In this document: positions 1 through 56,899 of the stretch, in pieces
Numbering within the stretch: the first letter of the stretch is position 1
Layout: each line of letters starts with the position of its first letter
NCBI GenBank assembly: GCA_963082975.1
Contig: OY720348.1
Span: 66,117,719 to 66,181,718, forward strand
DNA: 64,000 nt
Reading direction: 5' to 3'
From: Labia minor
Taxonomy: Eukaryota; Arthropoda; Insecta; Dermaptera; Spongiphoridae
Translations under genes and position numbers: made by a program
Notes under the pieces: generated by a model
Databases searched by the model: none
What the model was told of the DNA's origin: nothing
The model's input: the letters and a program-made list of their open reading frames with translations, nothing else

Positions 1-1007
1 CCAGGCTGTATTTATAGCAAAATTCACAGGTACAGTCGCATGCTAATAGAAGTAACTATTTAGAGTCAGTGAAAAAAAAATTAATCAAATAACTTTTTAA
101 AAAACATTATTTAAAAATAAATAATAAATATTTAAAAATAAAAAAAAAAATTAAAAAATAATAATATTAATTTAATCTTTATTGTTTTTGAACATTCACA
201 CATAATTTTATTTATTAATTTTAATGAATTATTTTGTTTGTTGTTATTAAATTATTTGTTTAAGAACATATTTCTATCATATTCTAATTAAATTGTTTTT
301 TACTTTATTAGTAATATTTTTTATAAAAAAAACACAACTGAATTTTAAAATACTTGAAATGAATAAAATATTATATTTTAAATTATTTGTCAATCTAATG
401 AAATATAATGACAACGAATTAATAAAATTTTTGTGATTTTCAGATATAAATTTAGAGATATATCTACATATTAATTGAAAATAGTACAGTTTAAAGAATG
501 GTAGTATCAAACTAAAGAAAAACAATTAAATAAATATTTTTTATTTTCAAGTACAACTATTGAAAAAAGCAAAATCTGCATACAAGTGAGTATAATAAAT
601 AAAAATGTAAATAGAATAAAGGAAATATATAAGGTTAAACTAAAATAAATGAAATAATAAGAAATATTTTTCAAACTTGAGATTTTTATTCAAATTTTTG
701 AGGTAAAAGTAACAAACAAAATAAAATTATAATAGAAATTGTTAGAATAAATAAATTTATTGTTTCAAATAATAGGAATGTTTACATAATGAAAACTAAT
801 AAAAATAGGAAAGTATTATAAATAAATAAATAAATAAATAAAAAAAAAGGAAAAATGTTTAAATAGAGAAATTATTTTTAGTACATGTTAATAAATAATA
901 AATCTTTTTGATAAGGAGATGTATTAATTAAATTATATCAACTCGAAGGAAAAAATAATATATTTCCCTCTCTTACACCTGTCATGTTAATATCTCTTAT
1001 ATATTAA

Positions 1008-1529
1008 TTATAATAATCGTCTTAGTTTTTGTTTATTTTTAATGTTTTGTTTCTCATGTTGAATTTGATTCGTGGTTTGTTTTAAAAATGTTTTCTTTTT
1101 TCTTGTCATTTGTCTATTTTCACTGGTTTCAACTATTCTACTATCTAAGAATTTGTTTGATTTATTTATATTTCTAGTGTTTGAATTGATGATATTAATA
1201 GAATTAATAGAATCAATGGATTTATTCTGATAATGTCTCGTATTAATTATTTTAGAAATTTCATTCATATGAAATTCTATATCGGTATTCATGCGTCTAT
1301 TATATGTTCTATAAGATTTTATTTTATTATATAAACGAGAATGTTTTTTAATAATACTTTTCCATTTTTTGCAGACATGATATGATTGATATAACGAAAC
1401 GATATCTAATTTGTTAAATATAATTTCAATAATTTCGATTGGTAAATTATTTATAAAATTTTCATTAAGAATGATGGATTCTGAAAATAAAGAAAAATTG
1501 TAGGCAAATAAATCGTAATTGACATTCAT
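1008..1529 (-). CDS. F-box protein, array copy 1 (reference copy)
   Basis: This is a 173-residue protein starting at an ATG with A at -3 and ending in TAA. Residues about 27-68 form an F-box: Leu29-Pro30, the IEIIEIIFNKLD helix, then the VCKKWKSI segment with the conserved Trp56 and Arg65 after it. F-boxes bind Skp1 and make the protein the substrate adaptor of an SCF ubiquitin ligase; that this copy does so is inference. The rest (75-173) is polar and low in complexity, rich in Asn, Ser, Ile and Lys, with basic patches at 143-146 and 169-171. I see no WD40, LRR or Kelch repeats, so no substrate domain is recognisable. There is no intron in the frame. A TATA box (1872-1879) and initiator (about 1847) lie upstream on the same strand, giving a 5' leader of about 318 nt. 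A TTTATT at about 757 is a possible poly(A) signal on the minus strand. Unit 1-1863. Confidence 0.8.
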   Translation of the reverse strand: MNVNYDLFAYNFSLFSESIILNENFINNLPIEIIEIIFNKLDIVSLYQSYHVCKKWKSIIKKHSRLYNKIKSYRTYNRRMNTDIEFHMNEISKIINTRHYQNKSIDSINSINIINSNTRNINKSNKFLDSRIVETSENRQMTRKKKTFLKQTTNQIQHEKQNIKNKQKLRRLL

Positions 1530-1846
1530 TATGTTAGTGAAAAGAATAACTTTGATATACCTACAATAGATAATAATAAATAAAATTGATAATTCAATGA
1601 AAGAAAAAGAGAATTATGTTTGAAGAATAATTTGTAAGTTATTTTAGAAGAAAAATATTATTTTTCTGAAAATATAATATAAATAATAATTACAATGAAA
1701 TGAAATAAATATATATATAAAAATAATTAATCCACAGAGTCGATAAAGAATGAAATTAAAAAGAATCAATATTTAATGAGTAAATAGAAATTGTACTAAA
1801 ACTATTTTGATAATGTGTGTATCGGCTATGAAGTCCGGAGACAAAG

Positions 1847-1879
1847 TGAAATCCATGTATAGTCCAGGCTGTATTTATA
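1847..1879 (-). promoter_or_regulatory. Core promoter (TATA box plus initiator) of each F-box unit, shown for copy 1
   Basis: On the minus strand TATAAATA (1872-1879) is followed 32 bases later by TTCACTTTG (A at 1847), close to the arthropod initiator TCA(G/T)T(C/T). The spacing is that expected of a TATA-Inr promoter. The surrounding 120 bp are the least AT-biased part of the unit. The same arrangement occurs at every complete unit boundary (TATA boxes at unit start +8 to +15; those for copies 2-25 are given with each copy) and is missing only upstream of copy 3. The TATA box at 9-16 would serve a copy left of the window. A short frame from an ATG at 1855-1857 would start upstream of the predicted start site and is unlikely to be used. 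Confidence 0.5.
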
Positions 1880-2869: not shown

Positions 2870-3391
2870 TTATAATAATCGTCTTAGTTTTTGTTTATTT
2901 TTAATGTTTTGTTTCTCATGTTGAATTTGATTCGTGGTTTGTTTTAAAAATGTTTTCTTTTTTCTTGTCATTTGTCTATTTTCACTGGTTTCAACTATTC
3001 TACTATCTAAGAATTTGTTTGATTTATTTATATTTCTAGTGTTTGAATTGATGATATTAATAGAATTAATAGAATCAATGGATTTATTCTGATAATGTCT
3101 CGTATTAATTATTTTAGAAATTTCATTCATATGAAATTCTATATCGGTATTCATGCGTCTATTATATGTTCTATAAGATTTTATTTTATTATATAAACGA
3201 GAATGTTTTTTAATAATACTTTTCCATTTTTTGCAGACATGATATGATTGATATAACGAAACGATATCTAATTTGTTAAATATAATTTCAATAATTTCGA
3301 TTGGTAAATTATTTATAAAATTTTCATTAAGAATGATGGATTCTGAAAATAAAGAAAAATTGTAGGCAAATAAATCGTAATTGACATTCAT
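2870..3391 (-). CDS. F-box protein, array copy 2
   Basis: Encodes the same 173 residues as copy 1. Unit 1864-3725, the plain haplotype with the shorter A-run at about 2703. TATA box 3734-3741, predicted start about 3709. Confidence 0.78.
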   Translation of the reverse strand: MNVNYDLFAYNFSLFSESIILNENFINNLPIEIIEIIFNKLDIVSLYQSYHVCKKWKSIIKKHSRLYNKIKSYRTYNRRMNTDIEFHMNEISKIINTRHYQNKSIDSINSINIINSNTRNINKSNKFLDSRIVETSENRQMTRKKKTFLKQTTNQIQHEKQNIKNKQKLRRLL

Positions 3392-4732: not shown

Positions 4733-5254
4733 TTATAATAATCGTCTTAGTTTTTGTTTATTTTTAATGTTTTGTTTCTCATGTTGAATTTGATTCGTGG
4801 TTTGTTTTAAAAATGTTTTCTTTTTTCTTGTCATTTGTCTATTTTCACTGGTTTCAACTATTCTACTATCTAAGAATTTGTTTGATTTATTTATATTTCT
4901 AGTGTTTGAATTGATGATATTAATAGAATTAATAGAATCAATGGATTTATTCTGATAATGTCTCGTATTAATTATTTTAGAAATTTCATTCATATGAAAT
5001 TCTATATCGGTATTCATGCGTCTATTATATGTTCTATAAGATTTTATTTTATTATATAAACGAGAATGTTTTTTAATAATACTTTTCCATTTTTTGCAGA
5101 CATGATATGATTGATATAACGAAACGATATCTAATTTGTTAAATATAATTTCAATAATTTCGATTGGTAAATTATTTATAAAATTTTCATTAAGAATGAT
5201 GGATTCTGAAAATAAAGAAAAATTGTAGGCAAATAAATCGTAATTGACATTCAT
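4733..5254 (-). CDS. F-box protein, array copy 3 (core promoter deleted)
   Basis: The protein is identical to copy 1, but the sequence upstream (higher coordinates) is cut at 5517. The 161 bp that carry the TATA box and initiator in every other unit are missing. The frame is intact, but transcription would need another promoter. It may therefore be a silent copy. Confidence 0.7.
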   Translation of the reverse strand: MNVNYDLFAYNFSLFSESIILNENFINNLPIEIIEIIFNKLDIVSLYQSYHVCKKWKSIIKKHSRLYNKIKSYRTYNRRMNTDIEFHMNEISKIINTRHYQNKSIDSINSINIINSNTRNINKSNKFLDSRIVETSENRQMTRKKKTFLKQTTNQIQHEKQNIKNKQKLRRLL

Positions 5255-5516
5255 TATGTTAGTGAAAAGAATAACTTTGATATACCTACAATAGATAATA
5301 ATAAATAAAATTGATAATTCAATGAAAGAAAAAGAGAATTATGTTTGAAGAATAATTTGTAAGTTATTTTAGAAGAAAAATATTATTTTTCTGAAAATAT
5401 AATATAAATAATAATTACAATGAAATGAAATAAATATATATATAAAAATAATTAATCCACAGAGTCGATAAAGAATGAAATTAAAAAGAATCAATATTTA
5501 ATGAGTAAATAGAAAT

Positions 5517-5521
5517 TAAAT
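5517..5521. other. Junction of a 161-bp deletion between units 3 and 4
   Basis: Left of 5517 is normal unit-3 tail (AATAGAAATT). Right of 5521 is unit-4 sequence that normally starts about 93 bp into the unit. Missing are the last 71 bp of unit 3 and the first 90 or so bp of unit 4. A few A/T bases at the join could be microhomology or filler. The spacing between flanking F-box starts is 1702 instead of 1862. Confidence 0.95.
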
Positions 5522-6434: not shown

Positions 6435-6956
6435 TTATAATAATCGTCTTAGTTTTTGTTTATTTTTAATGTTTTGTTTCTCATGTTGAATTTGATTCGT
6501 GGTTTGTTTTAAAAATGTTTTCTTTTTTCTTGTCATTTGTCTATTTTCACTGGTTTCAACTATTCTACTATCTAAGAATTTGTTTGATTTATTTATATTT
6601 CTAGTGTTTGAATTGATGATATTAATAGAATTAATAGAATCAATGGATTTATTCTGATAATGTCTCGTATTAATTATTTTAGAAATTTCATTCATATGAA
6701 ATTCTATATCGGTATTCATGCGTCTATTATATGTTCTATAAGATTTTATTTTATTATATAAACGAGAATGTTTTTTAATAATACTTTTCCATTTTTTGCA
6801 GACATGATATGATTGATATAACGAAACGATATCTAATTTGTTAAATATAATTTCAATAATTTCGATTGGTAAATTATTTATAAAATTTTCATTAAGAATG
6901 ATGGATTCTGAAAATAAAGAAAAATTGTAGGCAAATAAATCGTAATTGACATTCAT
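6435..6956 (-). CDS. F-box protein, array copy 4
   Basis: The protein is identical to copy 1. The unit (about 5521-7290) lacks its own head, which belongs to the promoter of copy 3, but keeps its tail, so its own TATA box (7299-7306) and initiator (about 7274) are present. It carries a private G-to-A change at about 5843, outside the F-box frame. Confidence 0.78.
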   Translation of the reverse strand: MNVNYDLFAYNFSLFSESIILNENFINNLPIEIIEIIFNKLDIVSLYQSYHVCKKWKSIIKKHSRLYNKIKSYRTYNRRMNTDIEFHMNEISKIINTRHYQNKSIDSINSINIINSNTRNINKSNKFLDSRIVETSENRQMTRKKKTFLKQTTNQIQHEKQNIKNKQKLRRLL

Positions 6957-8296: not shown

Positions 8297-9163
8297 TTAT
8301 AATAATCGTCTTAGTTTTTGTTTATTTTTAATGTTTTGTTTCTCATGTTGAATTTGATTCGTGGTTTGTTTTAAAAATGTTTTCTTTTTTCTTGTCATTT
8401 GTCTATTTTCACTGGTTTCAACTATTCTACTATCTAAGAATTTGTTTGATTTATTTATATTTCTAGTGTTTGAATTGATGATATTAATAGAATTAATAGA
8501 ATCAATGGATTTATTCTGATAATGTCTCGTATTAATTATTTTAGAAATTTCATTCATATGAAATTCTATATCGGTATTCATGCGTCTATTATATGTTCTA
8601 TAACAGAGGTTCTTAAACTTATGTACTCCGCGAACCCCCACTTGAAAAAAATTTTTTTGACGGACCCCATCCCAACTTTAGTTACTTTACGTCATTTTAT
8701 TAGTTAATTTCTGGCTTACGATCTCATAAGGACAAGGATATATGATGAATACACGCCGATGCAAACGACATCGACACCCGAAACTAGCAACACGCAACGC
8801 GGTAAATTTTCGAGTGTAGGATAAACAATAAACTTTAAATATTTATATACGATGATTTTTTTGTCAAATGGCTTTGCGGACCCCCAGTAAAGGCTTCGCG
8901 GACCCCCAGGGGTCCGCGGACCACAGTTTAAGAACCTCTGTTCTATAAGATTTTATTTTATTATATAAACGAGAATGTTTTTTAATAATACTTTTCCATT
9001 TTTTGCAGACATGATATGATTGATATAACGAAACGATATCTAATTTGTTAAATATAATTTCAATAATTTCGATTGGTAAATTATTTATAAAATTTTCATT
9101 AAGAATGATGGATTCTGAAAATAAAGAAAAATTGTAGGCAAATAAATCGTAATTGACATTCAT
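8297..9163 (-). pseudogene. F-box protein, array copy 5, split by a hAT element
   Basis: The frame starts normally at 9163 and matches copy 1 through residue 75 (KSYRT). It then runs into the transposon inserted at 8604-8940. The resulting frame (8864-9163) is 99 residues: the complete F-box followed by 24 residues read from the element, ending in a stop inside it. The remainder of the original tail (about residues 73-173) lies at 8297-8600 without its own ATG. The promoter (TATA 9506-9513) is intact, so a truncated F-box-only protein could still be made; that is inference. Unit 7291-9497. Confidence 0.88.
8604..8940. mobile_element. Non-autonomous hAT element (MITE), 337 bp
   Basis: The ends are perfect 16-bp inverted repeats, CAGAGGTTCTTAAACT, typical of hAT elements. 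The insertion is flanked by an 8-bp target duplication TTCTATAA at 8596-8603 and 8941-8948; the uninterrupted site with one TTCTATAA is seen in all other units. The inside is much more GC-rich near both ends (GCGGACCCC motifs) and contains no transposase frame, so it must have been moved by a relative elsewhere. Only one of 25 units has it, so it inserted after the array had formed. Confidence 0.93.
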
Positions 9164-10504
9164 TATGTTAGTGAAAAGAATAACTTTGATATACCTACAA
9201 TAGATAATAATAAATAAAATTGATAATTCAATGAAAGAAAAAGAGAATTATGTTTGAAGAATAATTTGTAAGTTATTTTAGAAGAAAAATATTATTTTTC
9301 TGAAAATATAATATAAATAATAATTACAATGAAATGAAATAAATATATATATAAAAATAATTAATCCACAGAGTCGATAAAGAATGAAATTAAAAAGAAT
9401 CAATATTTAATGAGTAAATAGAAATTGTACTAAAACTATTTTGATAATGTGTGTATCGGCTATGAAGTCCGGAGACAAAGTGAAATCCATGTATAGTCCA
9501 GGCTGTATTTATAGCAAAATTCACAGGTACAGTCGCATGCTAATAGAAGTAACTATTTAGAGTCAGTGAAAAAAAAATTAATCAAATAACTTTTTAAAAA
9601 ACATTATTTAAAAATAAATAATAAATATTTAAAAATAAAAAAAAAAATTAAAAAATAATAATATTAATTTAATCTTTATTGTTTTTGAACATTCACACAT
9701 AATTTTATTTATTAATTTTAATGAATTATTTTGTTTGTTGTTATTAAATTATTTGTTTAAGAACATATTTCTATCATATTCTAATTAAATTGTTTTTTAC
9801 TTTATTAGTAATATTTTTTATAAAAAAAACACAACTGAATTTTAAAATACTTGAAATGAATAAAATATTATATTTTAAATTATTTGTCAATCTAATGAAA
9901 TATAATGACAACGAATTAATAAAATTTTTGTGATTTTCAGATATAAATTTAGAGATATATCTACATATTAATTGAAAATAGTACAGTTTAAAGAATGGTA
10001 GTATCAAACTAAAGAAAAACAATTAAATAAATATTTTTTATTTTCAAGTACAACTATTGAAAAAAGCAAAATCTGCATACAAGTGAGTATAATAAATAAA
10101 AATGTAAATAGAATAAAGGAAATATATAAGGTTAAACTAAAATAAATGAAATAATAAGAAATATTTTTCAAACTTGAGATTTTTATTCAAATTTTTGAGG
10201 TAAAAGTAACAAACAAAATAAAATTATAATAGAAATTGTTAGAATAAATAAATTTATTGTTTCAAATAATAGGAATGTTTACATAATGAAAACTAATAAA
10301 AATAGGAAAGTATTATAAATAAATAAATAAATAAATAAAAAAAAAGGAAAAATGTTTAAATAGAGAAATTATTTTTAGTACATGTTAATAAATAATAAAT
10401 CTTTTTGATAAGGAGATGTATTAATTAAATTATATCAACTCGAAGGAAAAAATAATATATTTCCCTCTCTTACACCTGTCATGTTAATATCTCTTATATA
10501 TTAA

Positions 10505-11026
10505 TTATAATAATCGTCTTAGTTTTTGTTTATTTTTAATGTTTTGTTTCTCATGTTGAATTTGATTCGTGGTTTGTTTTAAAAATGTTTTCTTTTTTCT
10601 TGTCATTTGTCTATTTTCACTGGTTTCAACTATTCTACTATCTAAGAATTTGTTTGATTTATTTATATTTCTAGTGTTTGAATTGATGATATTAATAGAA
10701 TTAATAGAATCAATGGATTTATTCTGATAATGTCTCGTATTAATTATTTTAGAAATTTCATTCATATGAAATTCTATATCGGTATTCATGCGTCTATTAT
10801 ATGTTCTATAAGATTTTATTTTATTATATAAACGAGAATGTTTTTTAATAATACTTTTCCATTTTTTGCAGACATGATATGATTGATATAACGAAACGAT
10901 ATCTAATTTGTTAAATATAATTTCAATAATTTCGATTGGTAAATTATTTATAAAATTTTCATTAAGAATGATGGATTCTGAAAATAAAGAAAAATTGTAG
11001 GCAAATAAATCGTAATTGACATTCAT
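10505..11026 (-). CDS. F-box protein, array copy 6
   Basis: Identical protein. Unit 9498-11360, plain haplotype with the longer A-run. TATA box 11369-11376, predicted start about 11344. Confidence 0.78.
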   Translation of the reverse strand: MNVNYDLFAYNFSLFSESIILNENFINNLPIEIIEIIFNKLDIVSLYQSYHVCKKWKSIIKKHSRLYNKIKSYRTYNRRMNTDIEFHMNEISKIINTRHYQNKSIDSINSINIINSNTRNINKSNKFLDSRIVETSENRQMTRKKKTFLKQTTNQIQHEKQNIKNKQKLRRLL

Positions 11027-12365
11027 TATGTTAGTGAAAAGAATAACTTTGATATACCTACAATAGATAATAATAAATAAAATTGATAATTCAATGAAAG
11101 AAAAAGAGAATTATGTTTGAAGAATAATTTGTAAGTTATTTTAGAAGAAAAATATTATTTTTCTGAAAATATAATATAAATAATAATTACAATGAAATGA
11201 AATAAATATATATATAAAAATAATTAATCCACAGAGTCGATAAAGAATGAAATTAAAAAGAATCAATATTTAATGAGTAAATAGAAATTGTACTAAAACT
11301 ATTTTGATAATGTGTGTATCGGCTATGAAGTCCGGAGACAAAGTGAAATCCATGTATAGTCCAGGCTGTATTTATAGCAAAATTCACAGGTACAGTCGCA
11401 TGCTAATAGAAGTAACTATTTAGAGTCAGTGAAAAAAAAATTAATCAAATAACTTTTTAAAAAACATTATTTAAAAATAAATAATAAATATTTAAAAATA
11501 AAAAAAAAATTAAAAAATAATAATATTAATTTAATCTTTATTGTTTTTGAACATTCACACATAATTTTATTTATTAATTTTAATGAATTATTTTGTTTGT
11601 TGTTATTAAATTATTTGTTTAAGAACATATTTCTATCATATTCTAATTAAATTGTTTTTTACTTTATTAGTAATATTTTTTATAAAAAAAACACAACTGA
11701 ATTTTAAAATACTTGAAATGAATAAAATATTATATTTTAAATTATTTGTCAATCTAATGAAATATAATGACAACGAATTAATAAAATTTTTGTGATTTTC
11801 AGATATAAATTTAGAGATATATCTACATATTAATTGAAAATAGTACAGTTTAAAGAATGGTAGTATCAAACTAAAGAAAAACAATTAAATAAATATTTTT
11901 TATTTTCAAGTACAACTATTGAAAAAAGCAAAATCTGCATACAAGTGAGTATAATAAATAAAAATGTAAATAGAATAAAGGAAATATATAAGGTTAAACT
12001 AAAATAAATGAAATAATAAGAAATATTTTTCAAACTTGAGATTTTTATTCAAATTTTTGAGGTAAAAGTAACAAACAAAATAAAATTATAATAGAAATTG
12101 TTAGAATAAATAAATTTATTGTTTCAAATAATAGGAATGTTTACATAATGAAAACTAATAAAAATAGGAAAGTATTATAAATAAATAAATAAATAAATAA
12201 AAAAAAGGAAAAATGTTTAAATAGAGAAATTATTTTTAGTACATGTTAATAAATAATAAATCTTTTTGATAAGGAGATGTATTAATTAAATTATATCAAC
12301 TCGAAGGAAAAAATAATATATTTCCCTCTCTTACACCTGTCATGTTAATATCTCTTATATATTAA

Positions 12366-12887
12366 TTATAATAATCGTCTTAGTTTTTGTTTATTTTTAA
12401 TGTTTTGTTTCTCATGTTGAATTTGATTCGTGGTTTGTTTTAAAAATGTTTTCTTTTTTCTTGTCATTTGTCTATTTTCACTGGTTTCAACTATTCTACT
12501 ATCTAAGAATTTGTTTGATTTATTTATATTTCTAGTGTTTGAATTGATGATATTAATAGAATTAATAGAATCAATGGATTTATTCTGATAATGTCTCGTA
12601 TTAATTATTTTAGAAATTTCATTCATATGAAATTCTATATCGGTATTCATGCGTCTATTATATGTTCTATAAGATTTTATTTTATTATATAAACGAGAAT
12701 GTTTTTTAATAATACTTTTCCATTTTTTGCAGACATGATATGATTGATATAACGAAACGATATCTAATTTGTTAAATATAATTTCAATAATTTCGATTGG
12801 TAAATTATTTATAAAATTTTCATTAAGAATGATGGATTCTGAAAATAAAGAAAAATTGTAGGCAAATAAATCGTAATTGACATTCAT
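12366..12887 (-). CDS. F-box protein, array copy 7
   Basis: Identical protein. Unit 11361-13221, one A shorter in the poly(A) tract near 11500. TATA box 13230-13237. Confidence 0.78.
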   Translation of the reverse strand: MNVNYDLFAYNFSLFSESIILNENFINNLPIEIIEIIFNKLDIVSLYQSYHVCKKWKSIIKKHSRLYNKIKSYRTYNRRMNTDIEFHMNEISKIINTRHYQNKSIDSINSINIINSNTRNINKSNKFLDSRIVETSENRQMTRKKKTFLKQTTNQIQHEKQNIKNKQKLRRLL

Positions 12888-14227: not shown

Positions 14228-14749
14228 TTATAATAATCGTCTTAGTTTTTGTTTATTTTTAATGTTTTGTTTCTCATGTTGAATTTGATTCGTGGTTTGT
14301 TTTAAAAATGTTTTCTTTTTTCTTGTCATTTGTCTATTTTCACTGGTTTCAACTATTCTACTATCTAAGAATTTGTTTGATTTATTTATATTTCTAGTGT
14401 TTGAATTGATGATATTAATAGAATTAATAGAATCAATGGATTTATTCTGATAATGTCTCGTATTAATTATTTTAGAAATTTCATTCATATGAAATTCTAT
14501 ATCGGTATTCATGCGTCTATTATATGTTCTATAAGATTTTATTTTATTATATAAACGAGAATGTTTTTTAATAATACTTTTCCATTTTTTGCAGACATGA
14601 TATGATTGATATAACGAAACGATATCTAATTTGTTAAATATAATTTCAATAATTTCGATTGGTAAATTATTTATAAAATTTTCATTAAGAATGATGGATT
14701 CTGAAAATAAAGAAAAATTGTAGGCAAATAAATCGTAATTGACATTCAT
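14228..14749 (-). CDS. F-box protein, array copy 8
   Basis: Identical protein. Unit 13222-15083, plain haplotype. TATA box 15092-15099. Confidence 0.78.
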   Translation of the reverse strand: MNVNYDLFAYNFSLFSESIILNENFINNLPIEIIEIIFNKLDIVSLYQSYHVCKKWKSIIKKHSRLYNKIKSYRTYNRRMNTDIEFHMNEISKIINTRHYQNKSIDSINSINIINSNTRNINKSNKFLDSRIVETSENRQMTRKKKTFLKQTTNQIQHEKQNIKNKQKLRRLL

Positions 14750-16089: not shown

Positions 16090-16611
16090 TTATAATAATC
16101 GTCTTAGTTTTTGTTTATTTTTAATGTTTTGTTTCTCATGTTGAATTTGATTCGTGGTTTGTTTTAAAAATGTTTTCTTTTTTCTTGTCATTTGTCTATT
16201 TTCACTGGTTTCAACTATTCTACTATCTAAGAATTTGTTTGATTTATTTATATTTCTAGTGTTTGAATTGATGATATTAATAGAATTAATAGAATCAATG
16301 GATTTATTCTGATAATGTCTCGTATTAATTATTTTAGAAATTTCATTCATATGAAATTCTATATCGGTATTCATGCGTCTATTATATGTTCTATAAGATT
16401 TTATTTTATTATATAAACGAGAATGTTTTTTAATAATACTTTTCCATTTTTTGCAGACATGATATGATTGATATAACGAAACGATATCTAATTTGTTAAA
16501 TATAATTTCAATAATTTCGATTGGTAAATTATTTATAAAATTTTCATTAAGAATGATGGATTCTGAAAATAAAGAAAAATTGTAGGCAAATAAATCGTAA
16601 TTGACATTCAT
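16090..16611 (-). CDS. F-box protein, array copy 9
   Basis: Identical protein. Unit 15084-16945, plain haplotype. TATA box 16954-16961. Confidence 0.78.
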   Translation of the reverse strand: MNVNYDLFAYNFSLFSESIILNENFINNLPIEIIEIIFNKLDIVSLYQSYHVCKKWKSIIKKHSRLYNKIKSYRTYNRRMNTDIEFHMNEISKIINTRHYQNKSIDSINSINIINSNTRNINKSNKFLDSRIVETSENRQMTRKKKTFLKQTTNQIQHEKQNIKNKQKLRRLL

Positions 16612-17953: not shown

Positions 17954-18475
17954 TTATAATAATCGTCTTAGTTTTTGTTTATTTTTAATGTTTTGTTTCT
18001 CATGTTGAATTTGATTCGTGGTTTGTTTTAAAAATGTTTTCTTTTTTCTTGTCATTTGTCTATTTTCACTGGTTTCAACTATTCTACTATCTAAGAATTT
18101 GTTTGATTTATTTATATTTCTAGTGTTTGAATTGATGATATTAATAGAATTAATAGAATCAATGGATTTATTCTGATAATGTCTCGTATTAATTATTTTA
18201 GAAATTTCATTCATATGAAATTCTATATCGGTATTCATGCGTCTATTATATGTTCTATAAGATTTTATTTTATTATATAAACGAGAATGTTTTTTAATAA
18301 TACTTTTCCATTTTTTGCAGACATGATATGATTGATATAACGAAACGATATCTAATTTGTTAAATATAATTTCAATAATTTCGATTGGTAAATTATTTAT
18401 AAAATTTTCATTAAGAATGATGGATTCTGAAAATAAAGAAAAATTGTAGGCAAATAAATCGTAATTGACATTCAT
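17954..18475 (-). CDS. F-box protein, array copy 10 (CA-insertion haplotype)
   Basis: Identical protein. Unit 16946-18809 carries two markers: an extra CA at about 17224 (ATCACATATTC) and TTTCACTCTC instead of TTTCCCTCTC at about 17912, downstream of the F-box stop. TATA box 18818-18825. Confidence 0.78.
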   Translation of the reverse strand: MNVNYDLFAYNFSLFSESIILNENFINNLPIEIIEIIFNKLDIVSLYQSYHVCKKWKSIIKKHSRLYNKIKSYRTYNRRMNTDIEFHMNEISKIINTRHYQNKSIDSINSINIINSNTRNINKSNKFLDSRIVETSENRQMTRKKKTFLKQTTNQIQHEKQNIKNKQKLRRLL

Positions 18476-27270: not shown

Positions 27271-27792
27271 TTATAATAATCGTCTTAGTTTTTGTTTATT
27301 TTTAATGTTTTGTTTCTCATGTTGAATTTGATTCGTGGTTTGTTTTAAAAATGTTTTCTTTTTTCTTGTCATTTGTCTATTTTCACTGGTTTCAACTATT
27401 CTACTATCTAAGAATTTGTTTGATTTATTTATATTTCTAGTGTTTGAATTGATGATATTAATAGAATTAATAGAATCAATGGATTTATTCTGATAATGTC
27501 TCGTATTAATTATTTTAGAAATTTCATTCATATGAAATTCTATATCGGTATTCATGCGTCTATTATATGTTCTATAAGATTTTATTTTATTATATAAACG
27601 AGAATGTTTTTTAATAATACTTTTCCATTTTTTGCAGACATGATATGATTGATATAACGAAACGATATCTAATTTGTTAAATATAATTTCAATAATTTCG
27701 ATTGGTAAATTATTTATAAAATTTTCATTAAGAATGATGGATTCTGAAAATAAAGAAAAATTGTAGGCAAATAAATCGTAATTGACATTCAT
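27271..27792 (-). CDS. F-box protein, array copy 15 (CA-insertion haplotype)
   Basis: Identical protein. Unit 26263-28126 has both CA-haplotype markers (about 26541 and 27229). TATA box 28135-28142. Confidence 0.78.
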   Translation of the reverse strand: MNVNYDLFAYNFSLFSESIILNENFINNLPIEIIEIIFNKLDIVSLYQSYHVCKKWKSIIKKHSRLYNKIKSYRTYNRRMNTDIEFHMNEISKIINTRHYQNKSIDSINSINIINSNTRNINKSNKFLDSRIVETSENRQMTRKKKTFLKQTTNQIQHEKQNIKNKQKLRRLL

Positions 27793-29132: not shown

Positions 29133-29654
29133 TTATAATAATCGTCTTAGTTTTTGTTTATTTTTAATGTTTTGTTTCTCATGTTGAATTTGATTCGTGG
29201 TTTGTTTTAAAAATGTTTTCTTTTTTCTTGTCATTTGTCTATTTTCACTGGTTTCAACTATTCTACTATCTAAGAATTTGTTTGATTTATTTATATTTCT
29301 AGTGTTTGAATTGATGATATTAATAGAATTAATAGAATCAATGGATTTATTCTGATAATGTCTCGTATTAATTATTTTAGAAATTTCATTCATATGAAAT
29401 TCTATATCGGTATTCATGCGTCTATTATATGTTCTATAAGATTTTATTTTATTATATAAACGAGAATGTTTTTTAATAATACTTTTCCATTTTTTGCAGA
29501 CATGATATGATTGATATAACGAAACGATATCTAATTTGTTAAATATAATTTCAATAATTTCGATTGGTAAATTATTTATAAAATTTTCATTAAGAATGAT
29601 GGATTCTGAAAATAAAGAAAAATTGTAGGCAAATAAATCGTAATTGACATTCAT
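29133..29654 (-). CDS. F-box protein, array copy 16 (haplotype A)
   Basis: Identical protein. Unit 28127-29988 carries three markers shared only with unit 18 as a set: AAGAAGAAC at about 28642, AAAAACTGC at about 28700 and AATAAAAAAATAATAG at about 28847. All lie outside the F-box frame. TATA box 29997-30004. Confidence 0.78.
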   Translation of the reverse strand: MNVNYDLFAYNFSLFSESIILNENFINNLPIEIIEIIFNKLDIVSLYQSYHVCKKWKSIIKKHSRLYNKIKSYRTYNRRMNTDIEFHMNEISKIINTRHYQNKSIDSINSINIINSNTRNINKSNKFLDSRIVETSENRQMTRKKKTFLKQTTNQIQHEKQNIKNKQKLRRLL

Positions 29655-30994: not shown

Positions 30995-31516
30995 TTATAA
31001 TAATCGTCTTAGTTTTTGTTTATTTTTAATGTTTTGTTTCTCATGTTGAATTTGATTCGTGGTTTGTTTTAAAAATGTTTTCTTTTTTCTTGTCATTTGT
31101 CTATTTTCACTGGTTTCAACTATTCTACTATCTAAGAATTTGTTTGATTTATTTATATTTCTAGTGTTTGAATTGATGATATTAATAGAATTAATAGAAT
31201 CAATGGATTTATTCTGATAATGTCTCGTATTAATTATTTTAGAAATTTCATTCATATGAAATTCTATATCGGTATTCATGCGTCTATTATATGTTCTATA
31301 AGATTTTATTTTATTATATAAACGAGAATGTTTTTTAATAATACTTTTCCATTTTTTGCAGACATGATATGATTGATATAACGAAACGATATCTAATTTG
31401 TTAAATATAATTTCAATAATTTCGATTGGTAAATTATTTATAAAATTTTCATTAAGAATGATGGATTCTGAAAATAAAGAAAAATTGTAGGCAAATAAAT
31501 CGTAATTGACATTCAT
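30995..31516 (-). CDS. F-box protein, array copy 17 (haplotype B)
   Basis: Identical protein. Unit 29989-31850 has GGTATTATC (plain: GGTAGTATC) at about 30488 and a private T-to-C change at about 30893. TATA box 31859-31866. Confidence 0.78.
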   Translation of the reverse strand: MNVNYDLFAYNFSLFSESIILNENFINNLPIEIIEIIFNKLDIVSLYQSYHVCKKWKSIIKKHSRLYNKIKSYRTYNRRMNTDIEFHMNEISKIINTRHYQNKSIDSINSINIINSNTRNINKSNKFLDSRIVETSENRQMTRKKKTFLKQTTNQIQHEKQNIKNKQKLRRLL

Positions 31517-32856: not shown

Positions 32857-33378
32857 TTATAATAATCGTCTTAGTTTTTGTTTATTTTTAATGTTTTGTT
32901 TCTCATGTTGAATTTGATTCGTGGTTTGTTTTAAAAATGTTTTCTTTTTTCTTGTCATTTGTCTATTTTCACTGGTTTCAACTATTCTACTATCTAAGAA
33001 TTTGTTTGATTTATTTATATTTCTAGTGTTTGAATTGATGATATTAATAGAATTAATAGAATCAATGGATTTATTCTGATAATGTCTCGTATTAATTATT
33101 TTAGAAATTTCATTCATATGAAATTCTATATCGGTATTCATGCGTCTATTATATGTTCTATAAGATTTTATTTTATTATATAAACGAGAATGTTTTTTAA
33201 TAATACTTTTCCATTTTTTGCAGACATGATATGATTGATATAACGAAACGATATCTAATTTGTTAAATATAATTTCAATAATTTCGATTGGTAAATTATT
33301 TATAAAATTTTCATTAAGAATGATGGATTCTGAAAATAAAGAAAAATTGTAGGCAAATAAATCGTAATTGACATTCAT
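32857..33378 (-). CDS. F-box protein, array copy 18 (haplotype A)
   Basis: Identical protein. Unit 31851-33712 repeats all three haplotype-A markers of unit 16. TATA box 33721-33728. Confidence 0.78.
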   Translation of the reverse strand: MNVNYDLFAYNFSLFSESIILNENFINNLPIEIIEIIFNKLDIVSLYQSYHVCKKWKSIIKKHSRLYNKIKSYRTYNRRMNTDIEFHMNEISKIINTRHYQNKSIDSINSINIINSNTRNINKSNKFLDSRIVETSENRQMTRKKKTFLKQTTNQIQHEKQNIKNKQKLRRLL

Positions 33379-34718: not shown

Positions 34719-35240
34719 TTATAATAATCGTCTTAGTTTTTGTTTATTTTTAATGTTTTGTTTCTCATGTTGAATTTGATTCGTGGTTTGTTTTAAAAAT
34801 GTTTTCTTTTTTCTTGTCATTTGTCTATTTTCACTGGTTTCAACTATTCTACTATCTAAGAATTTGTTTGATTTATTTATATTTCTAGTGTTTGAATTGA
34901 TGATATTAATAGAATTAATAGAATCAATGGATTTATTCTGATAATGTCTCGTATTAATTATTTTAGAAATTTCATTCATATGAAATTCTATATCGGTATT
35001 CATGCGTCTATTATATGTTCTATAAGATTTTATTTTATTATATAAACGAGAATGTTTTTTAATAATACTTTTCCATTTTTTGCAGACATGATATGATTGA
35101 TATAACGAAACGATATCTAATTTGTTAAATATAATTTCAATAATTTCGATTGGTAAATTATTTATAAAATTTTCATTAAGAATGATGGATTCTGAAAATA
35201 AAGAAAAATTGTAGGCAAATAAATCGTAATTGACATTCAT
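34719..35240 (-). CDS. F-box protein, array copy 19 (haplotype B)
   Basis: Identical protein. Unit 33713-35574 has the GGTATTATC marker. With unit 18 it repeats the A-B order of units 16-17. TATA box 35583-35590. Confidence 0.78.
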   Translation of the reverse strand: MNVNYDLFAYNFSLFSESIILNENFINNLPIEIIEIIFNKLDIVSLYQSYHVCKKWKSIIKKHSRLYNKIKSYRTYNRRMNTDIEFHMNEISKIINTRHYQNKSIDSINSINIINSNTRNINKSNKFLDSRIVETSENRQMTRKKKTFLKQTTNQIQHEKQNIKNKQKLRRLL

Positions 35241-36580: not shown

Positions 36581-37102
36581 TTATAATAATCGTCTTAGTT
36601 TTTGTTTATTTTTAATGTTTTGTTTCTCATGTTGAATTTGATTCGTGGTTTGTTTTAAAAATGTTTTCTTTTTTCTTGTCATTTGTCTATTTTCACTGGT
36701 TTCAACTATTCTACTATCTAAGAATTTGTTTGATTTATTTATATTTCTAGTGTTTGAATTGATGATATTAATAGAATTAATAGAATCAATGGATTTATTC
36801 TGATAATGTCTCGTATTAATTATTTTAGAAATTTCATTCATATGAAATTCTATATCGGTATTCATGCGTCTATTATATGTTCTATAAGATTTTATTTTAT
36901 TATATAAACGAGAATGTTTTTTAATAATACTTTTCCATTTTTTGCAGACATGATATGATTGATATAACGAAACGATATCTAATTTGTTAAATATAATTTC
37001 AATAATTTCGATTGGTAAATTATTTATAAAATTTTCATTAAGAATGATGGATTCTGAAAATAAAGAAAAATTGTAGGCAAATAAATCGTAATTGACATTC
37101 AT
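36581..37102 (-). CDS. F-box protein, array copy 20 (haplotype B)
   Basis: Identical protein. Unit 35575-37436 with the GGTATTATC marker. TATA box 37445-37452. Confidence 0.78.
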   Translation of the reverse strand: MNVNYDLFAYNFSLFSESIILNENFINNLPIEIIEIIFNKLDIVSLYQSYHVCKKWKSIIKKHSRLYNKIKSYRTYNRRMNTDIEFHMNEISKIINTRHYQNKSIDSINSINIINSNTRNINKSNKFLDSRIVETSENRQMTRKKKTFLKQTTNQIQHEKQNIKNKQKLRRLL

Positions 37103-38442: not shown

Positions 38443-38964
38443 TTATAATAATCGTCTTAGTTTTTGTTTATTTTTAATGTTTTGTTTCTCATGTTGAATT
38501 TGATTCGTGGTTTGTTTTAAAAATGTTTTCTTTTTTCTTGTCATTTGTCTATTTTCACTGGTTTCAACTATTCTACTATCTAAGAATTTGTTTGATTTAT
38601 TTATATTTCTAGTGTTTGAATTGATGATATTAATAGAATTAATAGAATCAATGGATTTATTCTGATAATGTCTCGTATTAATTATTTTAGAAATTTCATT
38701 CATATGAAATTCTATATCGGTATTCATGCGTCTATTATATGTTCTATAAGATTTTATTTTATTATATAAACGAGAATGTTTTTTAATAATACTTTTCCAT
38801 TTTTTGCAGACATGATATGATTGATATAACGAAACGATATCTAATTTGTTAAATATAATTTCAATAATTTCGATTGGTAAATTATTTATAAAATTTTCAT
38901 TAAGAATGATGGATTCTGAAAATAAAGAAAAATTGTAGGCAAATAAATCGTAATTGACATTCAT
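38443..38964 (-). CDS. F-box protein, array copy 21 (haplotype B)
   Basis: Identical protein. Unit 37437-39298 with the GGTATTATC marker. TATA box 39307-39314. Confidence 0.78.
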   Translation of the reverse strand: MNVNYDLFAYNFSLFSESIILNENFINNLPIEIIEIIFNKLDIVSLYQSYHVCKKWKSIIKKHSRLYNKIKSYRTYNRRMNTDIEFHMNEISKIINTRHYQNKSIDSINSINIINSNTRNINKSNKFLDSRIVETSENRQMTRKKKTFLKQTTNQIQHEKQNIKNKQKLRRLL

Positions 38965-40304: not shown

Positions 40305-40826
40305 TTATAATAATCGTCTTAGTTTTTGTTTATTTTTAATGTTTTGTTTCTCATGTTGAATTTGATTCGTGGTTTGTTTTAAAAATGTTTTCTTTTTTCT
40401 TGTCATTTGTCTATTTTCACTGGTTTCAACTATTCTACTATCTAAGAATTTGTTTGATTTATTTATATTTCTAGTGTTTGAATTGATGATATTAATAGAA
40501 TTAATAGAATCAATGGATTTATTCTGATAATGTCTCGTATTAATTATTTTAGAAATTTCATTCATATGAAATTCTATATCGGTATTCATGCGTCTATTAT
40601 ATGTTCTATAAGATTTTATTTTATTATATAAACGAGAATGTTTTTTAATAATACTTTTCCATTTTTTGCAGACATGATATGATTGATATAACGAAACGAT
40701 ATCTAATTTGTTAAATATAATTTCAATAATTTCGATTGGTAAATTATTTATAAAATTTTCATTAAGAATGATGGATTCTGAAAATAAAGAAAAATTGTAG
40801 GCAAATAAATCGTAATTGACATTCAT
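40305..40826 (-). CDS. F-box protein, array copy 22 (haplotype C)
   Basis: Identical protein. Unit 39299-41160 has AATAAAAAAATAATAG (about 40019) and CCCTCCATTACATCTG (about 40263, plain CCCTCTCTTACACCTG) just past the F-box stop. TATA box 41169-41176. Confidence 0.78.
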   Translation of the reverse strand: MNVNYDLFAYNFSLFSESIILNENFINNLPIEIIEIIFNKLDIVSLYQSYHVCKKWKSIIKKHSRLYNKIKSYRTYNRRMNTDIEFHMNEISKIINTRHYQNKSIDSINSINIINSNTRNINKSNKFLDSRIVETSENRQMTRKKKTFLKQTTNQIQHEKQNIKNKQKLRRLL

Positions 40827-42166: not shown

Positions 42167-42688
42167 TTATAATAATCGTCTTAGTTTTTGTTTATTTTTA
42201 ATGTTTTGTTTCTCATGTTGAATTTGATTCGTGGTTTGTTTTAAAAATGTTTTCTTTTTTCTTGTCATTTGTCTATTTTCACTGGTTTCAACTATTCTAC
42301 TATCTAAGAATTTGTTTGATTTATTTATATTTCTAGTGTTTGAATTGATGATATTAATAGAATTAATAGAATCAATGGATTTATTCTGATAATGTCTCGT
42401 ATTAATTATTTTAGAAATTTCATTCATATGAAATTCTATATCGGTATTCATGCGTCTATTATATGTTCTATAAGATTTTATTTTATTATATAAACGAGAA
42501 TGTTTTTTAATAATACTTTTCCATTTTTTGCAGACATGATATGATTGATATAACGAAACGATATCTAATTTGTTAAATATAATTTCAATAATTTCGATTG
42601 GTAAATTATTTATAAAATTTTCATTAAGAATGATGGATTCTGAAAATAAAGAAAAATTGTAGGCAAATAAATCGTAATTGACATTCAT
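42167..42688 (-). CDS. F-box protein, array copy 23 (haplotype C)
   Basis: Identical protein. Unit 41161-43022 repeats both haplotype-C markers of its neighbour unit 22. TATA box 43031-43038. Confidence 0.78.
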   Translation of the reverse strand: MNVNYDLFAYNFSLFSESIILNENFINNLPIEIIEIIFNKLDIVSLYQSYHVCKKWKSIIKKHSRLYNKIKSYRTYNRRMNTDIEFHMNEISKIINTRHYQNKSIDSINSINIINSNTRNINKSNKFLDSRIVETSENRQMTRKKKTFLKQTTNQIQHEKQNIKNKQKLRRLL

Positions 42689-44029: not shown

Positions 44030-44551
44030 TTATAATAATCGTCTTAGTTTTTGTTTATTTTTAATGTTTTGTTTCTCATGTTGAATTTGATTCGTGGTTT
44101 GTTTTAAAAATGTTTTCTTTTTTCTTGTCATTTGTCTATTTTCACTGGTTTCAACTATTCTACTATCTAAGAATTTGTTTGATTTATTTATATTTCTAGT
44201 GTTTGAATTGATGATATTAATAGAATTAATAGAATCAATGGATTTATTCTGATAATGTCTCGTATTAATTATTTTAGAAATTTCATTCATATGAAATTCT
44301 ATATCGGTATTCATGCGTCTATTATATGTTCTATAAGATTTTATTTTATTATATAAACGAGAATGTTTTTTAATAATACTTTTCCATTTTTTGCAGACAT
44401 GATATGATTGATATAACGAAACGATATCTAATTTGTTAAATATAATTTCAATAATTTCGATTGGTAAATTATTTATAAAATTTTCATTAAGAATGATGGA
44501 TTCTGAAAATAAAGAAAAATTGTAGGCAAATAAATCGTAATTGACATTCAT
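44030..44551 (-). CDS. F-box protein, array copy 24 (haplotype B)
   Basis: Identical protein. Unit 43023-44885 returns to the GGTATTATC marker, with the longer A-run. TATA box 44894-44901. Confidence 0.78.
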   Translation of the reverse strand: MNVNYDLFAYNFSLFSESIILNENFINNLPIEIIEIIFNKLDIVSLYQSYHVCKKWKSIIKKHSRLYNKIKSYRTYNRRMNTDIEFHMNEISKIINTRHYQNKSIDSINSINIINSNTRNINKSNKFLDSRIVETSENRQMTRKKKTFLKQTTNQIQHEKQNIKNKQKLRRLL

Positions 44552-45891
44552 TATGTTAGTGAAAAGAATAACTTTGATATACCTACAATAGATAATAATA
44601 AATAAAATTGATAATTCAATGAAAGAAAAAGAGAATTATGTTTGAAGAATAATTTGTAAGTTATTTTAGAAGAAAAATATTATTTTTCTGAAAATATAAT
44701 ATAAATAATAATTACAATGAAATGAAATAAATATATATATAAAAATAATTAATCCACAGAGTCGATAAAGAATGAAATTAAAAAGAATCAATATTTAATG
44801 AGTAAATAGAAATTGTACTAAAACTATTTTGATAATGTGTGTATCGGCTATGAAGTCCGGAGACAAAGTGAAATCCATGTATAGTCCAGGCTGTATTTAT
44901 AGCAAAATTCACAGGTACAGTCGCATGCTAATAGAAGTAACTATTTAGAGTCAGTGAAAAAAAAATTAATCAAATAACTTTTTAAAAAACATTATTTAAA
45001 AATAAATAATAAATATTTAAAAATAAAAAAAAAAATTAAAAAATAATAATATTAATTTAATCTTTATTGTTTTTGAACATTCACACATAATTTTATTTAT
45101 TAATTTTAATGAATTATTTTGTTTGTTGTTATTAAATTATTTGTTTAAGAACATATTTCTATCATATTCTAATTAAATTGTTTTTTACTTTATTAGTAAT
45201 ATTTTTTATAAAAAAAACACAACTGAATTTTAAAATACTTGAAATGAATAAAATATTATATTTTAAATTATTTGTCAATCTAATGAAATATAATGACAAC
45301 GAATTAATAAAATTTTTGTGATTTTCAGATATAAATTTAGAGATATATCTACATATTAATTGAAAATAGTACAGTTTAAAGAATGGTAGTATCAAACTAA
45401 AGAAAAACAATTAAATAAATATTTTTTATTTTCAAGTACAACTATTGAAAAAAGCAAAATCTGCATACAAGTGAGTATAATAAATAAAAATGTAAATAGA
45501 ATAAAGGAAATATATAAGGTTAAACTAAAATAAATGAAATAATAAGAAATATTTTTCAAACTTGAGATTTTTATTCAAATTTTTGAGGTAAAAGTAACAA
45601 ACAAAATAAAATTATAATAGAAATTGTTAGAATAAATAAATTTATTGTTTCAAATAATAGGAATGTTTACATAATGAAAACTAATAAAAATAGGAAAGTA
45701 TTATAAATAAATAAATAAATAAATAAAAAAAAGGAAAAATGTTTAAATAGAGAAATTATTTTTAGTACATGTTAATAAATAATAAATCTTTTTGATAAGG
45801 AGATGTATTAATTAAATTATATCAACTCGAAGGAAAAAATAATATATTTCCCTCTCTTACACCTGTCATGTTAATATCTCTTATATATTAA

Positions 45892-46413
45892 TTATAATAA
45901 TCGTCTTAGTTTTTGTTTATTTTTAATGTTTTGTTTCTCATGTTGAATTTGATTCGTGGTTTGTTTTAAAAATGTTTTCTTTTTTCTTGTCATTTGTCTA
46001 TTTTCACTGGTTTCAACTATTCTACTATCTAAGAATTTGTTTGATTTATTTATATTTCTAGTGTTTGAATTGATGATATTAATAGAATTAATAGAATCAA
46101 TGGATTTATTCTGATAATGTCTCGTATTAATTATTTTAGAAATTTCATTCATATGAAATTCTATATCGGTATTCATGCGTCTATTATATGTTCTATAAGA
46201 TTTTATTTTATTATATAAACGAGAATGTTTTTTAATAATACTTTTCCATTTTTTGCAGACATGATATGATTGATATAACGAAACGATATCTAATTTGTTA
46301 AATATAATTTCAATAATTTCGATTGGTAAATTATTTATAAAATTTTCATTAAGAATGATGGATTCTGAAAATAAAGAAAAATTGTAGGCAAATAAATCGT
46401 AATTGACATTCAT
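45892..46413 (-). CDS. F-box protein, array copy 25 (right-most)
   Basis: Identical protein. Unit 44886-46747, plain haplotype. Its promoter (TATA 46756-46763, start about 46731) is supplied by the truncated unit 26, so the last gene of the array is still equipped for transcription. Confidence 0.78.
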   Translation of the reverse strand: MNVNYDLFAYNFSLFSESIILNENFINNLPIEIIEIIFNKLDIVSLYQSYHVCKKWKSIIKKHSRLYNKIKSYRTYNRRMNTDIEFHMNEISKIINTRHYQNKSIDSINSINIINSNTRNINKSNKFLDSRIVETSENRQMTRKKKTFLKQTTNQIQHEKQNIKNKQKLRRLL

Positions 46414-46747
46414 TATGTTAGTGAAAAGAATAACTTTGATATACCTACAATAGATAATAATAAATAAAATTGATAATTCAATGAAAGAAAAAGAGAATTA
46501 TGTTTGAAGAATAATTTGTAAGTTATTTTAGAAGAAAAATATTATTTTTCTGAAAATATAATATAAATAATAATTACAATGAAATGAAATAAATATATAT
46601 ATAAAAATAATTAATCCACAGAGTCGATAAAGAATGAAATTAAAAAGAATCAATATTTAATGAGTAAATAGAAATTGTACTAAAACTATTTTGATAATGT
46701 GTGTATCGGCTATGAAGTCCGGAGACAAAGTGAAATCCATGTATAGT

Positions 46748-47355
46748 CCAGGCTGTATTTATAGCAAAATTCACAGGTACAGTCGCATGCTAATAGAAGT
46801 AACTATTTAGAGTCAGTGAAAAAAAAATTAATCAAATAACTTTTTAAAAAACATTATTTAAAAATAAATAATAAATATTTAAAAATAAAAAAAAAAATTA
46901 AAAAATAATAATATTAATTTAATCTTTATTGTTTTTGAACATTCACACATAATTTTATTTATTAATTTTAATGAATTATTTTGTTTGTTGTTATTAAATT
47001 ATTTGTTTAAGAACATATTTCTATCACATATTCTAATTAAATTGTTTTTTACTTTATTAGTAATATTTTTTATAAAAAAAACACAACTGAATTTTAAAAT
47101 ACTTGAAATGAATAAAATATTATATTTTAAATTATTTGTCAATCTAATGAAATATAATGACAACGAATTAATAAAATTTTTGTGATTTTCAGATATAAAT
47201 TTAGAGATATATCTACATATTAATTGAAAATAGTACAGTTTAAAGAATGGTAGTATCAAACTAAAGAAAAACAATTAAATAAATATTTTTTATTTTCAAG
47301 TACAACTATTGAAAAAAGCAAAATCTGCATACAAGTGAGTATAATAAATAAAAAT
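46748..47355. repeat. Truncated unit 26 and right edge of the array
   Basis: The sequence follows the unit, including the CA insertion at about 47027, until AATAAAAAT at 47355, where it switches to unrelated AT-rich DNA. It lacks the F-box frame but keeps the promoter for copy 25. No target duplication or transposon end is obvious at the break. Confidence 0.95.
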
Positions 47356-49530: not shown

Positions 49531-49883
49531 TGTCTCGATAACTCGATTGAATAATTACCAAAAAACTAATTTATTAAATATTTCTTCTAATACGCCGGTA
49601 TATATAACTATTTTTAATAAGTATATTCCCTCTCCCACCCTCTCTTGGGAAATCGCTCTTAGATTTATTTCTAAATGAATTGAAATAATATTTTGATTTA
49701 ATATTTAAATAGAAGCCCCGCCTTTCCTAAACATACCCCCTTTGTTTTTTTTTCAATTCAAATAAATTTATAATTTTATATTAAATTAACAAATGAAATA
49801 AAATCTTTTGTTTTAGACAATGCAGCATTTCAACCATCCAAATTCATCAACTTTTTGCATTTCGCTACATCCTTGCATCTTCA

Positions 49884-56620: not shown

Positions 56621-56899
56621 TTTTTATTTGCATTTGATCTCTAGGTTCTTTTTAGCTAGGCTTCGCATTCATATTTATGTTAAATTTTTATGAGCATGGT
56701 GTGTTTTTAAAACCTTTTTCTCAAGTTCCATAACTCAGATTTAAACCTTTGATCTTTGCATTCCGATGAAATGAATCCTAAATGTTAAAAAAAAATTAAT
56801 ATAAAATAAACTCAATTTATTGTCCCAATAGACCCCACAAATTAAAGTAAAAACATGATATTTGAAAATATAATAAAGTTTAATTGGCAATTAGGTTTG

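What the first reader, a model, noticed from the sequence alone, without database searches (positions are those of the whole stretch)
1..47355. A gene-bearing macrosatellite: at least 25 near-identical F-box genes in one tandem array
Large homogeneous arrays are normally non-coding satellites, or rDNA, histone or snRNA genes. Here each 1862-bp unit carries its own promoter and an apparently intact F-box protein gene. Mass amplification of one SCF adaptor could mean dosage selection, a role in germline conflict or meiotic drive, or a young amplified sex- or B-chromosome locus. These meanings are inference; the array itself is directly visible.
Basis: partly seen in the sequence, partly recalled or inferred. 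Interest (0 to 1): 0.85.

Follow-up and report, generated by a model that had tools for sequence, protein, structure and literature searches.

The report
Tandem array of F-box genes
An unidentified, very AT-rich genome carries at least 26 near-identical head-to-tail copies (a few partial) of a 1.86-kb block, 24 of them with the same intact short gene for an F-box protein, a part that picks proteins for destruction; arrays built around a gene are known elsewhere, so it is unusual rather than unheard of, and what it does is not yet known.

Summary
Window 1-47355 is a head-to-tail array of an ~1862-bp unit, 26 units counting partial ones, mean pairwise identity 99.88%. It runs off the left edge, so its size is unknown. 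The genes are on the minus strand. Intact genes number 24 (522 nt, letter-identical), not 25: one copy is split by a 337-bp transposon, and the last unit ends before the ORF. One of the 24 has lost its core promoter to a ~160-bp deletion. The F-box is real (Pfam E 3.6e-8); the ORF exceeds chance (0 of 3000). A TATA/initiator-like pair lies 318 nt before the start codon, with no ATG between. Outside the deletion junction, 11 of 11 substitution sites miss core promoter, leader and ORF: suggestive of constraint, though both large lesions hit that region. Best reading: a young, homogenised array of a short, possibly expressed F-box gene, built like the human RS447/USP17 megasatellite. Drive, sex- or B-linkage and dosage selection are untested: no genome, expression data or homologue. 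Host unknown; composition fits aphid-parasitoid braconids.

The parts
1..47355 (.). Macrosatellite array, 26 head-to-tail units (u1-u26; u3/u4 joined by a deletion, u5 with an insert, u26 cut off); left end open at window edge
9498..11360 (.). Reference unit (u6), 1863 bp
11344..11376 (-). Predicted core promoter of the gene at 10505-11026: TATA-like box (first T at 11376) and initiator-like A (11344), 32 nt apart; the core block is repeated at the same distance before 23 of the 24 intact ORFs
11027..11344 (-). Predicted 5' leader of the same gene, 318 nt, no ATG
1008..1529 (-). F-box ORF, 173 aa, intact (u1)
2870..3391 (-). F-box ORF intact (u2)
4733..5254 (-). F-box ORF intact, core promoter deleted (u3)
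5513..5517 (.). Junction of the ~160-bp deletion that removes about unit positions 1793-1862 and 1-86, with the predicted TATA and initiator
6435..6956 (-). F-box ORF intact (u4)
8297..9163 (-). F-box ORF of u5, split by the insert at 8604-8940
8604..8940 (.). Short DNA transposon without coding capacity seen (hAT-like MITE; family recalled): 16-bp perfect inverted ends and 8-bp target duplication at 8596-8603 and 8941-8948
10505..11026 (-). F-box ORF intact (u6)
12366..12887 (-). F-box ORF intact (u7)
14228..14749 (-). F-box ORF intact (u8)
16090..16611 (-). F-box ORF intact (u9)
17954..18475 (-). F-box ORF intact (u10)
19816..20337 (-). F-box ORF intact (u11)
21681..22202 (-). F-box ORF intact (u12)
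23545..24066 (-). F-box ORF intact (u13)
25407..25928 (-). F-box ORF intact (u14)
27271..27792 (-). F-box ORF intact (u15)
29133..29654 (-). F-box ORF intact (u16)
30995..31516 (-). F-box ORF intact (u17)
32857..33378 (-). F-box ORF intact (u18)
34719..35240 (-). F-box ORF intact (u19)
36581..37102 (-). F-box ORF intact (u20)
38443..38964 (-). F-box ORF intact (u21)
40305..40826 (-). F-box ORF intact (u22)
42167..42688 (-). F-box ORF intact (u23)
44030..44551 (-). F-box ORF intact (u24)
45892..46413 (-). F-box ORF intact (u25)
46748..47355 (.). Truncated last unit (u26), no ORF; holds the TATA-like part of the core promoter of the u25 gene

Best explanation
A young tandem array of one short F-box gene without visible introns in its ORF, amplified as a ~1862-bp unit and kept alike by unequal exchange and gene conversion. 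Each standard unit is a complete predicted transcription unit: TATA/initiator core, 318-nt leader, 173-codon ORF, AATAAA signals downstream. The predicted protein would bind Skp1 through residues ~26-65, and its basic, low-complexity, helix-predicted tail would bind a substrate, so that the array raises the dose of one SCF ubiquitin-ligase adaptor. Shown: array, identity, ORF, F-box domain. Predicted from sequence: promoter, leader, polyadenylation. Inferred: expression, Skp1 binding, SCF function, dosage effect. Why it was amplified is not shown; constraint on the gene is only suggested, and a dosage or conflict role is a further inference.
For: Pfam F-box 33.4 bits (cut-off 20.5) and F-box-like 32.6 bits (cut-off 24.3). 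ORF 173 codons, against a mean longest ORF of 46 and a maximum of 130 in 3000 Markov-1 random units. TATA-like and initiator-like sites 32 nt apart, then 318 nt without ATG where 4.0 are expected (P 0.019); the ATG-free gap that holds this leader is the longest of the unit, 327 nt. 24 letter-identical ORFs. 0 of the 11 substitution sites away from the deletion junction fall in core promoter, leader or ORF (50.5% of the unit): P 4e-4 by site, 0.007 grouped into 7 events. Recurrent variant haplotypes (u16/u18; u19-u21 with u17 and u24 close; u22/u23) fit unequal exchange.
Against: No transcript data and no homologue, so no dN/dS. Codon-position signal is weak: GC 21.8, 23.0 and 19.0% at positions 1-3. 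For the ORF alone P is 0.027 by site and 0.10 by event. Regions were partly chosen after seeing the data, and the SNP-free arc also covers spacer 94-415. Both large lesions in the array, the transposon in u5 and the deletion at u3/u4, hit the ORF or the core promoter and are still there. The neighbour-likeness test is weak: P 0.09, 0.04, 0.14, 0.25, 0.14 at lags 1-5, uncorrected. The match to solved F-box structures is weak: phmmer E 0.058, Foldseek E 0.77 at best. No recognised domain beyond the F-box.
Confidence: 0.6

Rival explanations
1. A neutral macrosatellite that happened to capture an F-box gene. The unit spread by recombination alone, and the ORFs are intact only because the array is young and homogenised.
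For: 99.88% identity leaves little time for decay. Two large lesions sit in the gene or its promoter. Weak codon-position signal.
Against: Substitutions avoid core promoter, leader and ORF; ATG-free leader between predicted start site and start codon. Both are suggestive only.
Confidence: 0.27
2. A selfish or conflict-driven amplification (sex- or B-linked driver, suppressor, or toxin-antidote partner) in which copy number is the weapon or the shield. This is one possible reason for the best explanation, so the two odds overlap.
For: Multicopy gene families are the pattern in Stellate/Su(Ste) and Slx/Sly (PMC10618873, passages). F-box proteins act as antidotes that degrade toxins in Caenorhabditis tropicalis (PMC12680543, passages).
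Against: Resemblance of pattern only. Partner genes, a second array and sex linkage could not be looked for. No second F-box copy in the 16.6-kb right flank (tblastn, best E 2.2).
Confidence: 0.15
3. A parasitoid gene expanded against host or symbiont, in a braconid aphid parasitoid. It also overlaps with the best explanation.
For: Right-flank GC 24.8% fits Lysiphlebus fabarum (23.8%) and Aphidius ervi (25.8%), called the most AT-rich arthropod genomes at the time, with F-box/LRR families of 68 and 232 genes (PMC7257214, passages).
Against: No LRR in this protein. No signal peptide seen by eye (not tested). Composition does not identify a host.
Confidence: 0.12
4. Assembly artefact: one or two copies multiplied by the assembler.
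For: 18 of 26 units share their exact sequence with another unit. No read data to check.
Against: 14 distinct unit sequences, a private transposon with target duplication, a private deletion, haplotypes shared by non-adjacent units.
Confidence: 0.05

Closest known systems
Human RS447 megasatellite / USP17 (DUB-3)
   Same: Tandem array in which each unit carries an ORF for a ubiquitin-pathway protein; most but not all copies intact (20 of 23 on chromosome 4); 20-103 copies (PMC2874809, passages)
   Different: 4746-bp unit and a 1593-bp deubiquitinase ORF; here ~1862 bp and a 522-bp F-box ORF, very AT-rich. No homology was tested.
Drosophila Stellate / Su(Ste)
   Same: Tandemly repeated protein gene in many copies (PMC10618873, passages)
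   Different: Casein kinase II beta-like protein, X-linked, piRNA target. Linkage and small RNAs could not be tested here.
Tandem F-box gene clusters of Brassicaceae
   Same: F-box genes amplified in tandem (78 tandemly arrayed in one syntenic block of Eutrema salsugineum, 59 in Arabidopsis; PMC3604812, passages)
   Different: There, spread over ~15 and ~5 Mb and treated as a diverging family; here a 47-kb run of letter-identical ORFs.
F-box antidotes KSS-1/KSS-2 of Caenorhabditis tropicalis
   Same: F-box proteins that use SCF-dependent degradation in genetic conflict (PMC12680543, passages)
   Different: Paired with a toxin and with a C-terminal solenoid; here one gene, no partner seen, no recognised C-terminal domain.
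F-box/LRR expansions of Aphidius ervi and Lysiphlebus fabarum
   Same: F-box expansion in extremely AT-rich insects (PMC7257214, passages)
   Different: Those carry LRRs; none found here.

Membership tests
Gene-bearing macrosatellite (RS447 type) | Head-to-tail array of kilobase units, near-identical | tested here: met
   26 units of ~1862 bp, 99.88% mean identity over 25 of them
Gene-bearing macrosatellite (RS447 type) | Intact ORF in most units | tested here: met
   24 of 26 units
Gene-bearing macrosatellite (RS447 type) | Functional promoter in the unit | tested here: inconclusive
   TATA/initiator-like pair before 23 of 24 intact ORFs; activity not testable
Gene-bearing macrosatellite (RS447 type) | Copy number varies in the population | not testable with these tools
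   one sequence only
F-box protein (PF00646) | F-box domain above the curated cut-off | tested here: met
   33.4 bits against 20.5
F-box protein (PF00646) | Fold like Skp1-bound F-boxes | tested here: inconclusive
   single-sequence model, mean pLDDT 69, pTM 0.34; 3 of 10 Foldseek hits are F-box proteins in Skp1 complexes, E 0.77, 2.1 and 9.0
F-box protein (PF00646) | Known substrate-binding domain beyond the F-box (common, not required by the Pfam model) | tested here: not met
   no Pfam match in residues 71-173 at E up to 1
SCF ubiquitin-ligase adaptor | Binds Skp1 | not testable with these tools
   needs a binding assay
Sex-linked amplified driver (Stellate type) | Sex-chromosome location and germline expression | not testable with these tools
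   no genome held
Toxin-antidote element with F-box antidote | Linked toxin gene | tested here: inconclusive
   no other ATG ORF above 37 aa in the unit; 10 of 90 right-flank frames of 45 aa or more scanned, none above a Pfam cut-off; the left flank is outside the window
Non-coding satellite | No ORF beyond chance | tested here: not met
   0 of 3000 Markov-1 random units reach 173 codons

The most novel reading that the evidence does not exclude
The array is a dosage weapon or shield in an intragenomic conflict: a macrosatellite whose repeat is itself a working F-box gene, so that array length sets the dose of a ubiquitin-ligase adaptor that degrades (or protects from) a rival chromosome's product.
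Probability: 0.12. Interest if true: 0.85.

Novelty: new member of a known kind. Interest (0 to 1): 0.5.

Why it matters
If expressed, this adds a ubiquitin-ligase adaptor to the protein genes known to live as homogeneous macrosatellites, and makes the question 'does array length set the dose of a protein?' testable with one sequence-identical gene. If it proves sex- or B-linked, it becomes a candidate for conflict-driven amplification that works through protein degradation. If silent, it shows how a gene can turn into a satellite.

Tried and rejected
Own-genome search: no genome held. Structural RNA: no Rfam match at gathering thresholds in the window; no tRNA by ARAGORN. The more GC-rich ends of the unit (29% and 37% GC in the first and last bins) were first thought of as a small-RNA gene; they are better read as the minus-strand core promoter. 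Viral origin: no relative in viral contigs by protein (9 pattern matches, none confirmed) or by exact promoter DNA. Prokaryotic contigs, in case of host contamination: 50 pattern matches, none confirmed; exact promoter-region DNA 0. Bacterial promoter scan: 53 found against 46.8 expected in shuffles. Unit against right flank by blastn: only short AT-rich matches, best E 0.002. A splice-donor-like site after the stop codon was set aside; its GT is changed in u22 and u23 (site 978). Right-flank frames: 10 of 90 of 45 aa or more were scanned; the two weak matches (HNH E 0.064, SAM_Exu E 0.02) are below cut-off.

Paper searches for an F-box macrosatellite, array, B- or sex-chromosome amplification: 0 papers, 14 papers listed, 10 of 16 listed, 4 listed; none of these describes one as far as titles and starts of abstracts show. 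One search found one paper, on plant tandem F-box genes (passages read). Searches gave the comparison papers. Passages only were read of PMC2874809, PMC12680543, PMC10618873, PMC12062965, PMC7257214, PMC7728225 and PMC3604812. So 'not in print' means not found in these open-access searches.

Rows dropped and limits: u26 was left out of the identity comparison and the neighbour test. One search printed 13 substitution sites because it merged neighbouring columns; the full list is 14. Three of them (86, 89, 93; u4 only) sit at the deletion junction and depend on the alignment, and 86 lies one base outside the region called promoter; the tests quoted use the other 11. One search also ran 13 sites (P 1e-4). 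The random model is first-order Markov, not an exact shuffle.
Full report
What was checked. The window has 64000 bases and no N. In 1-47355 self-match peaks at lag 1862. BLAST of the first unit gives 27 pieces that make 26 units; spacings between unit anchors are 1861-1865, except 1702 (a deletion) and 2207-2208 (an insertion). Mean identity among the 25 units other than u26 is 99.88%, minimum 99.49%, over 300 pairs with gap columns left out. 14 of 26 unit sequences are distinct, and 18 of 26 share their exact sequence with another unit. The array touches the left edge of the window, so copy number is a lower bound; on the right it ends at 47355, within a unit, against other AT-rich DNA. GC is 18.5% in the array and 24.8% in the right flank.

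The gene. On the minus strand of the reference unit lies an ORF of 173 codons; no other ATG ORF there exceeds 37 aa. 24 copies of the 522-nt ORF are letter-identical. Pfam gives F-box at E 3.6e-8 over residues 26-65 and F-box-like at 6.7e-8, both above cut-off; F-box_4 is below it. In 3000 random units of the same first-order composition the longest ORF averaged 46 codons and reached 130 at most. Codon-position GC differs little (21.8, 23.0, 19.0%). Among solved structures the only sequence match up to E 1 is yeast Cdc4, over its F-box, at E 0.058, which is not significant by itself. A single-sequence AlphaFold2 model has mean pLDDT 69 and pTM 0.34, with helices at 23-27, 31-40, 43-50 and 54-62 in the F-box, a helix at 64-122 whose second half is poorly supported, and a better-scored helix at 136-172. 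Foldseek gave 10 matches up to E 10, none up to 0.001; the best two are Skp1-Cdc4 entries (E 0.77 and 2.1) and the ninth is SKP1-FBXO22 (E 9.0).

The transcription unit. On the minus strand a TATA-like box and an initiator-like site lie 32 nt apart, and the first ATG after that site is the ORF start, 318 nt on. The ATG-free gap that holds this leader is the longest of the unit (327 nt); 4.0 ATGs are expected in the leader, and 1.9% of random leaders have none. The site was picked before the count, but by eye. The core block lies 352 nt before 23 of the 24 intact ORFs; the exception is the u3 gene, whose block fell in the ~160-bp deletion. Three AATAAA hexamers lie 247-463 nt after the stop codon, as chance would also give in such DNA. 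None of this shows transcription.

Variation. The full list has 14 substitution columns, three of them at the u4 deletion junction, where the alignment is unsure. None of the other 11 lies in core promoter, leader or ORF (50.5% of the unit): P 4e-4 by site and 0.007 in seven linked groups; for the ORF alone 0.027 and 0.10. The longest SNP-free arc is 1300 nt for the 11 sites (P 5e-5) and 1307 nt for the seven groups (P 0.0046). This favours constraint, but the regions were partly chosen after the data were seen, the arc also covers spacer, and a recent conversion event could do the same. Against it, both large lesions hit the gene or its promoter. Haplotypes recur in nearby units (u16 and u18; u17 close to u19-u21; u22 and u23); neighbour tests give P 0.09, 0.04, 0.14, 0.25 and 0.14 at lags 1-5, uncorrected. 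That is weakly what unequal exchange predicts.

Damage. The u5 copy is split by a 337-bp element at 8604-8940 with 16-bp perfect inverted ends and an 8-bp target duplication; 'hAT-like' is recalled. It is seen in this unit only, so the array probably stood when it landed.

What it is. The closest architecture is the human RS447 megasatellite: 4746-bp unit, USP17 ORF, 20-103 copies, 20 of 23 ORFs intact on chromosome 4 in one assembly (PMC2874809, passages); also a ubiquitin-pathway gene. The array here meets the structural tests; promoter activity and polymorphism could not be tested. Tandem F-box genes as such are known in plants (PMC3604812, passages). Stellate and Slx/Sly show that amplified genes can take part in sex-chromosome conflict (PMC10618873, passages), and F-box proteins are antidotes in a nematode (PMC12680543, passages).

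Host. Not identified. The flank composition fits the aphid parasitoids Lysiphlebus fabarum (23.8% GC) and Aphidius ervi (25.8%), which also have expanded F-box/LRR families (PMC7257214, passages). Other AT-rich lineages are possible.

Verdict. Observation confirmed, with the intact count corrected to 24. Interpretation partly supported: a gene-bearing macrosatellite with a real F-box gene, whose reason for existing is open.

Noticed in passing
8604-8940: MITE-like element with 16-bp perfect inverted ends and 8-bp target duplication inside one F-box copy; family (hAT) recalled.
   Followed up: partly
57277-57935: Second element with inverted ends CAGTGGCGCAACAAGG / CTTGGTTGCGCCACTG and TATATTA direct repeats on both sides.
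   Followed up: partly
56409-56634 and 59253-59445: Two copies of one repeat in inverted orientation, 82-89% complementary in three pairs of arms (I1, I2, I4).
   Followed up: no
52292-53050: 289-bp direct duplication plus a partial third copy, next to a GC-rich stretch at about 53060-53420.
   Followed up: no
63248-63490: Reading frame that resembles a piece of a mariner transposase by eye (recalled motif); Pfam gave no match above cut-off.
   Followed up: partly
49797-49955: Possible coding exon with a hydrophobic, signal-peptide-like stretch before a GTAAGT donor; no Pfam match.
   Followed up: partly
9447-9560: A 37-aa plus-strand ORF that crosses the unit boundary, antisense to the predicted core promoter; probably chance.
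   Followed up: no
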